From IMG/VR virus record IMGVR_UViG_3300025466_000012, positions 1 through 64,000 of that record: 64,000 nucleotides of DNA; one strand, given 5' to 3'. The position numbers and the translations under genes were made by a program. The notes beneath the pieces were generated by a model. The model worked only from the letters and a program-made list of their open reading frames with translations. It was not told the DNA's origin and made no database searches. Positions 51,278 to 55,789 of this stretch are shown in pieces (positions within the stretch are counted from its first letter, which is position 1; each line of letters starts with the position of its first letter). The DNA is from a virus.

Positions 51278-52294
51278 ATGCGAACAGCCAAAATAATAGT
51301 GCGTGACGAAGTCAATATCAAAATTGAAGGACTTGAGTTAGACGCAAGACGGGCCTTGGTCCGAGCTTTTGAATATGATGTGCCTGGTGCCAGATACTTG
51401 CCAGCAGTTAGACTGGGCCGTTGGAACGGCAAGACCAGCTACTTCCAGTTAGGAGGTAGTAGCTATGTGAATCTTTTACCCGAGATCGTGCCCATACTCG
51501 AGCAGTTCAATTACGATATCGAGCTGGATGACCAACGCGAATACTCAACCACTTTTGAATTTGCGCAAGTACACGAAAACAGTTTTGCACACATAGCTTG
51601 GCCCAAGGGACATCCTTCAGAAGGTGAACCCATGCAGTTACGGGATTATCAGGTCAGCATAATCAACGATTTTTTGATCAATCCACAATGCATACAGGAG
51701 ATAGCTACCGGTGCCGGCAAGACCGTGATAACTGCTGCACTATCAAACGCAGTGGCACCACTAGGGCGTACCATAGTTATTGTGCCCAACAAGAGCTTGG
51801 TCACACAGACCGAACGAGACTACATCAACATGCAACAGGATGTGGGTGTGTACTTTGGCGACAGAAAAGAATGGGGTCGGCAACACACTATCTGTACCTG
51901 GCAAAGCCTCAATGTGTTGTTAAAGAATACCAAGTCAGGTGTGGGTGATTGCACCATTGGCGAGTTCCTGGAAGATGTGGTGTGTGTGATTGTAGACGAA
52001 TGTTTTGCTGGAGATAGTAAAGTGCTGACTCCGGATGGATATAGGCAGATCAAAGATATTAAATCGGGCGATAAAGTTATTAACTATTCTGAGACTACCA
52101 AAGAGTTTAAAGTAGATACTGTAGTTAAACAGCATAAGAACCTGACAAATTCTGCTAGCGAAACTATGTTTGAATTAGAATTTGATAATGGCAACCAAAT
52201 ACAAGTCACAGGTAATCATAAGTTTCTTACTGATCGAGGCTGGGTCCGGGCAGATGCACTGACAGAAGAGCACGAAATTATTAATAAAACATAA
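51278..52294 (+). CDS. uvsW: UvsW helicase N-terminal half fused to a split N-intein
   Basis: Residues 1-241 are UvsW: N-terminal domain with L-G-R-W-N-G-K-T-S-Y-F, Q motif L-R-D-Y-Q, Walker A A-T-G-A-G-K-T, motif Ia V-P-N-K-S-L-V-T-Q and the start of motif II V-I-V-D-E. At residue 242 the reading frame goes straight into an intein: C-F-A-G-D-S-K-V-L-T-P-D-G (block A) and V-T-G-N-H-K-F-L-T-D-R-G-W-V (block B), 97 residues, then a stop. The host protein is therefore cut between E and C of the DECH box. Activity needs trans-splicing with the product of 53211. The ATG at 51278 has no ribosome site. Confidence 0.93.
   Translation: MRTAKIIVRDEVNIKIEGLELDARRALVRAFEYDVPGARYLPAVRLGRWNGKTSYFQLGGSSYVNLLPEIVPILEQFNYDIELDDQREYSTTFEFAQVHENSFAHIAWPKGHPSEGEPMQLRDYQVSIINDFLINPQCIQEIATGAGKTVITAALSNAVAPLGRTIVIVPNKSLVTQTERDYINMQQDVGVYFGDRKEWGRQHTICTWQSLNVLLKNTKSGVGDCTIGEFLEDVVCVIVDECFAGDSKVLTPDGYRQIKDIKSGDKVINYSETTKEFKVDTVVKQHKNLTNSASETMFELEFDNGNQIQVTGNHKFLTDRGWVRADALTEEHEIINKT
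52001..52291 (+). other. Split N-intein (97 aa) in UvsW
   Basis: Starts with Cys1 and has the block A (D-S-K-V-L-T) and block B (T-G-N-H) residues needed for the first splicing step. No endonuclease domain is fused to it. The length of about 97 residues is usual for the N part of naturally split inteins. Confidence 0.92.
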
Positions 52295-52297
52295 ATA
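52290..52297 (+). promoter_or_regulatory. Late promoter CATAAATA for the endonuclease inside uvsW
   Basis: NATAAATA match overlapping the N-intein stop, 24 bases before the endonuclease ATG, which has an AGAGGT ribosome site. Confidence 0.65.
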
Positions 52298-52321
52298 CAT
52301 ATAACTAAAGCAGAGGTATTT

Positions 52322-53233
52322 ATGAAGAAAACAGCAGATCAGATGATGAAAATTATTAATAACAGATTAACAGAATATAGCCAACACACCAGAGTAGTTG
52401 AGTGGTCGGGTAAGAATATTATGTTATCAACCGGTAAAATATTAACAAATTCCGACAGGGCAAGATTTATAAAACGAATCATGAATACAAAAACTGATCT
52501 ATGGTGTCGTTGCATGGACAGATTGATAAGCGGTGAGATAACAGAACCTGAAATTAAATCCAAGTTATCTGCAATCGGTGGTACCGCAGTCCAGAAAAAA
52601 CACGGTAATACTATCAAAAAAAATCTTAATACCGGCATTCCCTGGAATGCCGGAACTAGAGGACAGAACATAGGTACCCGCGGAGCCCGAACACAAATAG
52701 TTAAAGATAAAATTAGTGTAAAAAATTCTGGGAGCAACAATGGAATGTACGGGGTTAGGTTGTCAGACTTGGACAAAAAAACAAAGTCTGAAATAATGAA
52801 ACAAAAAATATTGTCGGGTGAATTTACCCCAAACAGTAATAACAGAAATACACATTGGGAATCAACATTTGCTGGTAAATCATACCGGTCTAGTTGGGAG
52901 GCATTATATCAATATTTTAATAAAGATGCCGAATACGAAAAACTAAGAATCAAATATAATATTAACAATACAACAAAAATTTATATTGTTGATTTCGTAG
53001 ATTATATCAACCGGCAAGTTATAGAAGTTAAACCTCGAGAGCTATGTACTGGAGAAAAATTTCAAGCCAAACTAACTGCATTGACCGCCTGGGCAGAATT
53101 AAACAAATATGCGTTGATAATAGCAGACAAAGAATGGTTTCAATTACAAAATAACAATATAGATTATACAAAATTTGATGATAGTACTGCACGAAAAATA
53201 AAAGAACTATATGAAACTAATAAAAAGAACTGA
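52322..53233 (+). CDS. Free-standing homing-type endonuclease inserted between the uvsW halves (303 aa)
   Basis: The N-terminal two-thirds is Lys/Asn-rich with G-I-P-W-N-A-G-T-R-G and N-N-G-M-Y-G-V, resembling NUMOD3-type DNA-binding pieces of mobile nucleases. The C-terminal domain has Y-R-S-S-W-E-A-L (about 189-196), Y-I-V-D-F-V-D-Y and V-I-E-V-K-P: the E, D and E-x-K of a PD-(D/E)XK or Vsr-like nuclease. The same pattern and spacing is seen in this phage's gp4. The gene is AT-rich, has its own late promoter, and overlaps the start of the UvsW C-half by 23 bases. It probably mobilises the intein locus. Confidence 0.8.
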   Translation: MKKTADQMMKIINNRLTEYSQHTRVVEWSGKNIMLSTGKILTNSDRARFIKRIMNTKTDLWCRCMDRLISGEITEPEIKSKLSAIGGTAVQKKHGNTIKKNLNTGIPWNAGTRGQNIGTRGARTQIVKDKISVKNSGSNNGMYGVRLSDLDKKTKSEIMKQKILSGEFTPNSNNRNTHWESTFAGKSYRSSWEALYQYFNKDAEYEKLRIKYNINNTTKIYIVDFVDYINRQVIEVKPRELCTGEKFQAKLTALTAWAELNKYALIIADKEWFQLQNNNIDYTKFDDSTARKIKELYETNKKN

Positions 53234-53315
53234 AATCCTCAAACCACTCGAAGTGTTTAATTTGCACATAGAAAACGATCACAATTACATTGTGGATGGT
53301 GCAGTGGTATCAAAT
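53211..53315 (+). other. Split C-intein (35 aa) in UvsW
   Basis: Block F-like N-D-H-N-Y-I-V-D-G and block G V-V-S-N before Cys+1. The penultimate residue is Ser in place of the usual His; the terminal Asn and the following Cys are present. Confidence 0.92.
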
Positions 53316-54053
53316 TGCCACATGGCCAAGGCCGATGCACTCAAAACACTCCTGACCGGCGTAATGAGTCGTATTCCCATCCGTTGGGGATTAACAGGAA
53401 CTATTCCCAAAGAACCATTCGAGTCGCAGGCCTTGAAGTGTAGTCTAGGACCAGTGATCAATCAGCTTACCGCCAGCGAATTGCAAGACCGTGGTGTGCT
53501 GGCCCAGTGTCATGTGAACATAGTACAACTGGTGGACCATGCCGAGTTTGCCAACTATCAAAGCGAACTGAAATTTTTGCTAGAAGAATCTGGACGTCTA
53601 GATGCCATGGCCAGTTTGATACGTCAGGTAAATGAAACCGGCAATACCCTGGTTCTGGTGGACCGGATCGCAGCCGGACAAGGACTTTTAGAACGTTTGG
53701 GCAACGGGGCTGTCATGGTATCGGGTGCGACCAAGGCCCAGGCCCGACAGGACGAATACGACGAAGTGGCCGATGCCACCGGCAAGATTATCGTGGCCAC
53801 ATACGGTGTTGCAGCCGTAGGTATCAACATACCCAGGATCTTTAATCTGGTCTTGGTCGAGCCTGGCAAGAGCTTTGTGCGGGTGATCCAGAGCATTGGT
53901 CGTGGCATCAGGAAAGCCGAAGACAAGGATCATGTTGAAATCTGGGACATAACCAGCACCTGCAAGTTTGCCAAGCGACACTTGACCAAACGCAAACAGT
54001 TTTATAAAGAGGCCAAGTACAATTTCACACAGGAGAAATTGGAGTGGAAATAA
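53211..54053 (+). CDS. uvsW: Split C-intein fused to the UvsW helicase C-terminal half
   Basis: Residues 1-35 are the C-intein (L-E-V-F-N-L-H-I-E-N-D-H-N-Y-I-V-D-G, ending V-V-S-N). Residue 36 is the Cys+1 that begins C-H-M-A-K-A-D-A-L, completing the DECH box. The rest carries W-G-L-T-G-T-I-P-K (motif III), A-T-Y-G-V-A-A-V-G-I-N-I-P (motif V) and Q-S-I-G-R-G-I-R-K (motif VI). Joining 241 and 245 residues gives a 486-residue helicase, close to T4 UvsW (503). Translation starts inside the endonuclease gene without a strong ribosome site, so it may be coupled to it. Confidence 0.93.
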   Translation: MKLIKRTEILKPLEVFNLHIENDHNYIVDGAVVSNCHMAKADALKTLLTGVMSRIPIRWGLTGTIPKEPFESQALKCSLGPVINQLTASELQDRGVLAQCHVNIVQLVDHAEFANYQSELKFLLEESGRLDAMASLIRQVNETGNTLVLVDRIAAGQGLLERLGNGAVMVSGATKAQARQDEYDEVADATGKIIVATYGVAAVGINIPRIFNLVLVEPGKSFVRVIQSIGRGIRKAEDKDHVEIWDITSTCKFAKRHLTKRKQFYKEAKYNFTQEKLEWK

Positions 54054-54597: not shown

Positions 54598-54894
54598 ATG
54601 GGAAATTTAAAACCTGGCGCAACCCTTATATACGAGCGTGTGGGCGATGTGGTCTATGAGCGAGAGTTCGGTGCCGATCCAGCCAAGCGGCGGGTGGTGG
54701 GTTGGGATCATGTCATGGATCCCACCTATGATCATTATGATCCCAGAACAAAGATCGACTCTGCGATAGATCGTCTGAGACAGGACCGGCTATGGGGAGA
54801 AATTCGGCGAGCCGCACAAGAAAATACCGCACTGCGAGATGTGTTGGATCAAGCCGTGGCAATATATCAATTGAGCAGGCCCAATGACAGATAA
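54598..54894 (+). CDS. Small conserved phage protein (98 aa), unknown
   Basis: Starts one base after the previous stop. Opening G-N-L-K-P-G-A-T-L-I-Y-E-R-V-G-D-V-V-Y-E-R-E-F-G is a widely shared phage pattern in three parts, followed by a W-D-H repeat region and a C-terminal helix. Possibly a replication accessory or structural protein. No domain with known role is recognised. Confidence 0.65.
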   Translation: MGNLKPGATLIYERVGDVVYEREFGADPAKRRVVGWDHVMDPTYDHYDPRTKIDSAIDRLRQDRLWGEIRRAAQENTALRDVLDQAVAIYQLSRPNDR

Positions 54895-55789
54895 AGTCAC
54901 GATTGAGATACACTCAGAAGGCGATGTATGGACCAATCGTGACAGCGTGATACAGCAATTGGGTACGGTCTCGGTTGATCAAGTGGTAATCATACATACC
55001 AGATTTGAAGGAATCAGTCTTGCAGCCTCCGGAGTGCTGGCAGTGTTGGGCGACTGGGTAGCGTCGACCGGGCGTGATCCCAGTACTGTGAAGGTCAATA
55101 CTCCCAATCAGTACGAAACAATACCTTATCAGTTTGAAAATAACCCAACAGTTCCACACTTTTTCAAACCCAGCCTGCTAAAATACCACCGTGCATGTAC
55201 CGCGATTGATCCTGACGCATCGTTGTTTGGACTGTTTGTTGGCAGATATACTGCCATGCGCAACACCATGGCCCGAGACATGCTCCATGGCTATTCGGAT
55301 CATACTGTCATCAGCGTGATGAATACTCCTAGATTGGGAGCAACCAACTGGTGGGATCCCGAAGTGGAACAGATCGGATCTTTAGACAATTTCGATCTGA
55401 TGGATCATTACAATCATGTGGCCGATATCAGCCAGAGTCTATTACAGTTCTACGATCGTTTCCAGATTGAAATTGTGTCCGAAACTGTTACTCTAGGCGA
55501 TTCATTTTTTCCTACCGAAAAGACCATACGTCCTATCGTGGGATCCAAACCATTCTTGTCTTATGCCACCCGAGGTTTCTTGTCTCGGTTGCGAGATCTT
55601 GGATTCCAGACTTTTGATAAATTATGGTCTGAGCACTACGATCAACTTGAAGGTGCTGACCGCTGGCATCAGATCAAGATAGTCATAGACAGCATAATTG
55701 AGCAAGGGTACGATCGCAATCTGGCCAACAAGATAGTACAATACAACTATGCTCATCAAAAAACAATAACCAATAGTAGACATGGATAA
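54884..55789 (+). CDS. Conserved phage protein (301 aa), unknown
   Basis: Overlaps the previous gene by 11 bases. The most conserved-looking stretch is F-F-P-T-E-K-T-I-R-P-I-V-G-S-K-P-F-L (about residues 207-224) and G-F-Q-T-F-D-K-L-W-S-E (about 241-251), a pair seen in phage and giant-virus proteins, sometimes labelled glycosyltransferase-like. No sugar-nucleotide site is evident by eye, so no function is assigned. It lies in a run of overlapping replication-block genes. Confidence 0.6.
   Translation: MTDKVTIEIHSEGDVWTNRDSVIQQLGTVSVDQVVIIHTRFEGISLAASGVLAVLGDWVASTGRDPSTVKVNTPNQYETIPYQFENNPTVPHFFKPSLLKYHRACTAIDPDASLFGLFVGRYTAMRNTMARDMLHGYSDHTVISVMNTPRLGATNWWDPEVEQIGSLDNFDLMDHYNHVADISQSLLQFYDRFQIEIVSETVTLGDSFFPTEKTIRPIVGSKPFLSYATRGFLSRLRDLGFQTFDKLWSEHYDQLEGADRWHQIKIVIDSIIEQGYDRNLANKIVQYNYAHQKTITNSRHG

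What the first reader, a model, noticed from the sequence alone, without database searches (positions are those of the whole stretch)
51278..54053. Fractured uvsW with a split intein placed inside the DECH box
The N-half stops the helicase after V-I-V-D-E and continues into C-F-A-G-D-S-K-V (intein start). The C-half begins with a 35-residue C-intein ending V-V-S-N and resumes C-H-M-A-K-A-D. Splicing would rebuild D-E-C-H and a 486-residue UvsW. Until trans-splicing occurs neither half has a complete Walker B, so the intein controls helicase activity. Split inteins in fractured phage genes are known for gp41, NrdJ and IMPDH types; a UvsW site is one I do not recognise as described. The penultimate Ser instead of His is also unusual.
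Basis: partly seen in the sequence, partly recalled or inferred. Interest (0 to 1): 0.92.

Follow-up and report, generated by a model that had tools for sequence, protein, structure and literature searches.

The report
Mobile split intein breaking phage UvsW
In this virus the DNA-repair helicase gene uvsW is cut in two by a self-splicing protein element (a split intein) carrying its own DNA-cutting mobility gene; relatives show the element jumping between phages and losing that mobility gene, so it is a new and well-sampled case of a known kind of selfish element.

Summary
Rejoining the exteins gives a 486-residue UvsW (profile match to T4 UvsW 2OCA, E 2.1e-41). Three other metagenome contigs carry a 100% identical arrangement, so an assembly error is unlikely.

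It is not unique. The same site is fractured in Salmonella phage S16, Proteus phage PM2 and about 60 IMG/VR contigs. The PHROGs library already holds both halves as families, annotated only 'DNA helicase'.

Between phages the insert is far more alike than the flanking exteins (94.5% vs 59-65% DNA; 97.6% vs 73-75%), with steps at the splice junctions: lateral movement as one cassette. Relatives show empty sites, HEG decay or deletion with the gene still split, and contiguous mini-inteins; one group of these keeps a trace of the HEG 3' end, suggesting re-fusion.

Penultimate Ser is the norm here (24 of 32; Ala 6, His 2) and occurs in DnaE inteins. Regulation of helicase activity is not supported; a mobile parasite kept harmless by trans-splicing fits best. 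New member of the fractured-gene kind. Splicing and cleavage are inferred, not shown.

The parts
51278..52294 (+). N-half ORF: UvsW residues 1-241 fused to the N-intein (338 aa, stop TAA 52292-52294)
   Evidence: phrog_16259 over residues 4-336, E 2.3e-59
51278..52000 (+). N-extein (UvsW N-terminal domain and helicase motifs up to Walker B DE)
   Evidence: Pfam ResIII 2.8e-13; profile vs T4 UvsW 2OCA E 2.1e-41
51707..51724 (+). Walker A T-G-A-G-K-T; intact here, but in several relatives it carries a second, atypically split intein (GAGK|T)
   Evidence: alignment; for relatives
51995..52000 (+). D-E of the DECH box: insertion point between codons 241 and 242
   Evidence: uninterrupted in empty-site relatives
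52001..52291 (+). N-intein, 97 aa: Cys1, block B T-G-N-H
   Evidence: TIGR01445 E 8.5e-13; PDB mini-inteins 7cfv 2.4e-7, 4o1r 3.3e-7
52310..52316 (+). Shine-Dalgarno-like GCAGAGG of the endonuclease ORF
   Evidence: sequence; similar AG-rich motif in relatives
52322..53233 (+). Free-standing homing endonuclease gene, 303 aa: NUMOD3-type linker and TnsA-like PD-(D/E)XK nuclease (conserved E193, D224, E235-x-K237)
   Evidence: Pfam over 21 homologues: TnsA-like 17 (best 2.6e-9), NUMOD3 15 (best 4.3e-8); invariant residues; AF2 pLDDT 85; Foldseek TnsA, I-Bth0305I, weak
53211..53233 (+). 23-nt overlap of the HEG 3' end with the C-half start; C-half lacks a strong ribosome site, so probably translationally coupled
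   Evidence: inference
53211..54053 (+). C-half ORF: C-intein fused to UvsW residues 242-486 (280 aa)
   Evidence: phrog_9690 residues 5-273, E 5.7e-52
53211..53315 (+). C-intein, 35 aa, ending V-V-S-N (penultimate Ser, terminal Asn)
   Evidence: TIGR01443 22.1 bits vs cut-off 15.6; 8.2e-6 in whole record
53316..54050 (+). C-extein starting Cys+1-His (rest of DECH box and RecA-like domain 2)
   Evidence: Pfam Helicase_C 4.3e-8

Best explanation
This is a fractured gene: a mobile cassette made of a canonically split class 1 intein plus a free-standing homing endonuclease, inserted at the DE|CH codons of uvsW. Shown by sequence: the anatomy, the exact site, and lateral transfer of the cassette between phages. 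Inferred: (a) the HEG cuts uvsW alleles with an empty site during mixed infection and recombination copies the cassette in; (b) the two half-proteins are made separately, the HEG from its own ribosome site and the C-half probably by coupling to the HEG it overlaps; (c) the intein halves associate and splice in trans by the ordinary Cys1 / Asn / Cys+1 chemistry, giving intact 486-residue UvsW. Placing the insert in the ATPase Walker B box lets only precise removal restore function, which protects the parasite. Over time the HEG decays or is deleted, leaving a two-gene split intein, and in at least one lineage probably a re-fused contiguous mini-intein.
For: Intein signatures on both halves above curated cut-offs. 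Cys1 in all 60 loci read and T-x-N-H block B in all 60; Asn-Cys+1-His at the C junction in all 32 distinct inteins tallied (L066 left out). Empty sites in about 20 relatives are continuous across the junction to the base, e.g. L080 749-1027/1028-1759. Lateral transfer: L038 vs L041 insert 94.5% DNA identity, exteins 58.5% and 65.3%, step at the junctions; window vs L008 97.6% vs 75.1% and 72.7%; HEG dS 0.10 while extein silent sites are saturated. Presence/absence needs at least 9 changes on the extein tree; one clade of empty alleles rejected, AU p 1.3e-7. L017's intein groups with L010's while its extein groups with empty alleles (AU p 0.014). The same cassette sits at the same site in Salmonella phage S16 and Proteus PM2, with intein 59-63% (N part) but extein only 24-28% identical to the window. 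HEG family carries NUMOD3 and TnsA-like nuclease; omega 0.10-0.35 for HEG, 0.05-0.14 for inteins where dS is measurable. A contiguous relative folds as a Hint domain inside UvsW (2lwy, TM 0.79, rmsd 2.5).
Against: No splicing or cleavage experiment exists in this work. The HEG fold match is weak (best Foldseek E 0.048) and its DNA target is not known. Exteins may differ in rate from the insert, though a step of 20-30 points at both junctions is hard to get that way. The polarity of split versus contiguous states is not settled by rooted trees.
Confidence: 0.88

Rival explanations
1. Regulatory switch: trans-splicing (rate, redox state, or delayed production of the C-half) times UvsW helicase activity during infection, and the intein is kept for that benefit.
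For: Insertion in Walker B leaves both halves without ATPase activity until spliced (sequence). Redox- and stress-responsive inteins in a helicase are published for mycobacterial DnaB (PMC6195587, abstract).
Against: Patchy presence with at least 9 gains/losses, close relatives without it (L097 next to L020), lateral spread as a cassette with an endonuclease, and contiguous or empty alleles in close kin all fit a parasite and need no benefit.
Confidence: 0.06
2. No splicing: the halves work as a non-covalent two-subunit helicase, as described for the split NrdA of phage Aeh1 (PMC2988022), or UvsW is simply lost.
For: Split phage enzymes that work unspliced are known (PMC2988022). Splicing was not tested here.
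Against: Both intein parts are conserved with all catalytic residues in every relative and under strong purifying selection, even where the HEG is gone (L014, L017, L036, L047). A 97 + 35 aa interruption inside DECH is unlikely to be tolerated unspliced.
Confidence: 0.04
3. Assembly or chimera artefact joining two genomes.
For: Sharp GC drop in the insert.
Against: Identical arrangement in three other IMG datasets and the same arrangement in deposited genomes of cultured phages.
Confidence: 0.01

Closest known systems
Fractured genes with split inteins and free-standing homing endonucleases (Dassa et al. 2009, NAR 37:2560; gp41, NrdA, NrdJ, IMPDH types)
   Same: Enzyme gene broken in two ORFs by a canonically split intein with an endonuclease gene between the halves, in phage
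   Different: Host gene and site (UvsW DE|CH); HEG looks TnsA-like with NUMOD3, where the paper (from memory, not held here) describes a Vsr-like family. Whether the paper's eight enzyme types (from memory) include UvsW could not be checked.
Fractured terminase TerL with atypically split intein (AceL-TerL, GOS-TerL kind)
   Same: In Escherichia phage HY03 and Shewanella phage Thanatos-2 a related TnsA-like HEG lies between two TerL halves, inserted at the Walker B DE|C of TerL with Cys+1
   Different: TerL intein is split near its N end (short N-intein); the UvsW intein is split at the usual position (97 + 35 aa)
Fractured uvsW of Salmonella phages S16, STP4-a, SEA1 and Proteus phage PM2
   Same: Same site DE|CH, same split position, same HEG family, HEG overlapping the C-half
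   Different: Penultimate His (ALAHN) instead of Ser; exteins only about 24-28% identical; annotated merely as DNA helicase
Cyanobacterial DnaE split inteins (Ssp, Npu)
   Same: Canonical split, short C-intein, penultimate Ser, Cys+1 (and general knowledge)
   Different: No HEG between the halves (general knowledge); other host gene
T4 segE/uvsW intronless homing
   Same: Endonuclease targeting uvsW in T-even phages (PMC2988022)
   Different: SegE is GIY-YIG and sits beside uvsW between genes, not inside the gene with an intein

Membership tests
Fractured-gene split intein (Dassa type) | Conserved enzyme gene broken into two ORFs whose joined exteins give a full-length protein | tested here: met
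   486-aa UvsW; empty-site relatives continuous
Fractured-gene split intein (Dassa type) | Split intein halves at the break | tested here: met
   TIGR01445 and TIGR01443 above cut-off
Fractured-gene split intein (Dassa type) | Free-standing endonuclease gene between the halves | tested here: met
   ORF 52322-53233, NUMOD3 and TnsA-like family
Fractured-gene split intein (Dassa type) | Protein trans-splicing | not testable with these tools
   needs expression of both halves
Class 1 intein | Cys/Ser1, block B T-x-x-H, C-terminal Asn, Cys/Ser/Thr+1 | tested here: met
   C1, TGNH, N, C+1 in the window; C1 and TxNH in all 60 loci read, N and C+1 in all 32 distinct inteins tallied
Class 1 intein | Penultimate His (assisting, not obligatory) | tested here: not met
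   Ser in the window; Ser 24, Ala 6, His 2 of 32; inteins without it splice (references in PMC4031507)
UvsW helicase (SF2) | Overall homology to T4 UvsW | tested here: met
   2OCA E 2.1e-41 by profile; top Foldseek hit of contiguous relative
UvsW helicase (SF2) | Walker A and DECH motifs | tested here: met
   TGAGKT 51707-51724; DE|CH after joining
Vsr-like homing endonuclease (I-Bth0305I type) | Recognisable sequence or fold match to I-Bth0305I / Vsr | tested here: inconclusive
   No sequence match in PDB; weak fold match to 3r3p, prob 0.66, E 0.21, TnsA scores better
Homing endonuclease | Cuts the intein-free allele near the insertion site | not testable with these tools
   only indirect: lateral spread of the cassette with sharp boundaries

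The most novel reading that the evidence does not exclude
The UvsW DE|CH site preserves the whole life cycle of a fractured gene, including its reversal: a split intein with HEG loses the HEG but stays split (L014, L017, L036, L047) and in the L028/L059 lineage is re-fused by deletion into a contiguous mini-intein that still carries the HEG 3' end in another frame. Split and contiguous inteins would then be interconvertible states driven by HEG turnover. Some relatives carry a second split intein at Walker A, so uvsW is broken twice.
Probability: 0.5. Interest if true: 0.68.

Novelty: new member of a known kind. Interest (0 to 1): 0.52.

Why it matters
It adds a host gene and site to the fractured genes, with a deep natural series (about 60 contigs plus cultured phages) at one codon. 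Empty, split with HEG, split with decayed or deleted HEG, and contiguous alleles occur side by side, so how split inteins arise and whether they can heal becomes directly testable. Proteus phages PM2 (broken) and Pm5461 (intact, exteins 97.5% and 90.6% identical in DNA) form a ready natural pair. The many intein halves are also new candidates for trans-splicing tools.

Tried and rejected
Assembly artefact: rejected by independent identical contigs and cultured phages. Penultimate Ser as a defect: rejected, it is the family norm. L045 as a recent re-fusion of L041: the two are sisters by extein (100/99), but their inteins are much more diverged than their exteins and L045 shows no HEG trace, so I do not use it as proof, though it keeps a Met where the C-half start lies. 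L031 and L046 contiguous inteins show no HEG trace either and may be older states. HEG scan of viral contigs with a 3-sequence alignment was unspecific (8 loci). Genome-contig scan found only two distant intein or Hint-like matches. VidaL/T4Lh literature search gave nothing on the site.

Full report
Check of the observation. The N-half ORF (51278-52294), the C-half ORF (53211-54053), the break after V-I-V-D-E and the resumption at C-H-M-A-K-A-D are all as described. N-intein 52001-52291 (97 aa) scores E 8.5e-13 against TIGR01445 and the C-intein 22.1 bits against a cut-off of 15.6 for TIGR01443. Both are the only such hits in the 199,683-bp virus record. The helicase is UvsW: a 43-row profile of relatives finds T4 UvsW 2OCA at 2.1e-41. 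The exteins join to 241 + 245 = 486 residues.

Between the halves lies a 303-aa ORF (52322-53233) with its own ribosome-site-like GCAGAGG. It overlaps the C-half start by 23 nt. Of 21 homologues, 17 match the Pfam TnsA-like nuclease and 15 match NUMOD3, a DNA-binding motif of homing endonucleases. Conserved residues E193, D224, E235-x-K237 fit a PD-(D/E)XK nuclease; the AlphaFold model (pLDDT 85) has as its best nuclease matches TnsA and the homing endonuclease I-Bth0305I, both weakly. The insert is AT-rich.

Not one of a kind. PHROGs 16259 and 9690 cover the two halves including the intein parts. Salmonella phages S16, STP4-a and SEA1 and Proteus phage PM2 have the same cassette at the same codon, annotated as 'DNA helicase' or 'uvsW_1/uvsW_2'. 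A viral-contig search gave 69 loci, about 60 of them with an intein at DE|CH. The window's arrangement is 100% identical in L005, L006 and L009 from other datasets, which excludes an assembly error in practice.

Mobility. About 20 contigs have an uninterrupted DECH at roughly 45-73% extein identity. On a 44-row extein tree, presence versus absence needs at least 9 changes, 7 forced by well-supported branches; L020 (broken) is sister to L097 (empty). The empties as one clade are rejected (AU p 1.3e-7). L017's intein is sister to L010's (98/85) while its extein is sister to empty alleles (96/87); forcing its extein with the window group is rejected at p 0.014. DNA identity profiles are plain: L038 vs L041 94.5% in the insert against 58.5% and 65.3% in the exteins, window vs L008 97.6% against 75.1% and 72.7%, with the step at the splice junctions. 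HEG dS is 0.10 for L038/L041 while extein silent sites are saturated. The cassette therefore moves as one unit between phages.

Life cycle at one site. States seen: split with HEG (most); split with frameshifted HEG (L044, L063); split without HEG (L014, whose N-ORF now ends in the HEG tail IYETN-stop; L017, where TAA is followed directly by the C-half ATG; L036; L047, with a 25-residue HEG remnant); and contiguous mini-inteins (L028-L030, L031, L045, L046, and L059/L061/L067). In L028 and L059 the 15-21 nt before the C-intein resemble the HEG 3' end of split relatives (13 of 15 nt; p 0.007 or lower against shuffles), as they do in L047, but not in L031, L045 or L046. Contiguous inteins are not one clade (AU p 7e-5), although L028, L059 and L045 alone are not rejected as one (p 0.16). 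I read L028/L059 as re-fusion after HEG deletion; the alternative, that a HEG invaded a contiguous intein and took over the linker as its own tail, is not excluded without a rooted tree.

How it most likely works. Shown: anatomy, exact site, lateral cassette transfer, purifying selection on intein (omega 0.05-0.14) and HEG (0.10-0.35) in the pairs where dS is measurable. Inferred: HEG cleavage of empty uvsW and copying by recombination; coupled translation of the C-half (its start overlaps or abuts an upstream stop in the window, L014 and L017); assembly of the intein halves and class 1 trans-splicing through Cys1, Asn and Cys+1. A contiguous relative (L045) is predicted to fold as a Hint domain within UvsW (2lwy, TM 0.79; mean pLDDT 75, so moderate confidence).

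Penultimate Ser. 24 of 32 distinct inteins at this site have Ser, 6 Ala and only the two enterobacterial-phage rows (S16, PM2) His. The DnaE intein alignment also runs to Ala-Ser before the last residue, and splicing without the penultimate His is established (references in PMC4031507).

Regulation. That both halves lack a whole Walker B before splicing is a consequence of position, not evidence of control. The patchy, laterally spread distribution favours a selfish element.

Novelty. I found no paper naming a UvsW split intein, but the library does not hold Dassa et al. 2009 and does not cover most subscription journals, so absence is weak evidence. By kind it is a fractured-gene split intein: new member, new host-gene site as far as I could check.

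Noticed in passing
L047, L048, L051, L052, L054-L060, L064, L065 (Walker A of uvsW): A second, atypically split intein at GAGK|T: short N-intein of about 25-40 aa (e.g. L056 CRTYDSTMDIDVGNSDFAQFLLNRRKT), remainder of the intein ending HHN|T on the next ORF, often with another ORF of about 400 aa between. Where both sites are occupied uvsW is broken twice.
   Followed up: partly
L114 (Escherichia phage HY03) 1396-4248; L115 (Shewanella phage Thanatos-2) 467-3567: T4-like terminase gene fractured at its Walker B DE|C with a TnsA-like HEG related to the window's between the halves; in Thanatos-2 the HEG is fused in frame to the N-half. One HEG family seems to serve DE|C boxes of two different ATPases with differently split inteins.
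   Followed up: partly
L003 (Proteus phage PM2) vs L113 (Proteus phage Pm5461): Closely related cultured phages, one with fractured and one with intact uvsW; exteins 97.5% and 90.6% identical in DNA. C-extein identity falls sharply in the last 200 nt, next to a second homing endonuclease in PM2.
   Followed up: partly
L003 4546-5256; L002 1212-1847: Further homing endonuclease genes beside uvsW: in PM2 between uvsW and uvsW.1, in S16 between inh and uvsW (the segE position of T4).
   Followed up: no
L044 and L063, 1084-1353: Another N-intein-like stretch (30% identity to the window's N-intein) about 2.9 kb upstream of the fractured uvsW.
   Followed up: no
window 54884-55789: 301-aa ORF downstream of uvsW with no PHROG match at E 0.01.
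   Followed up: no
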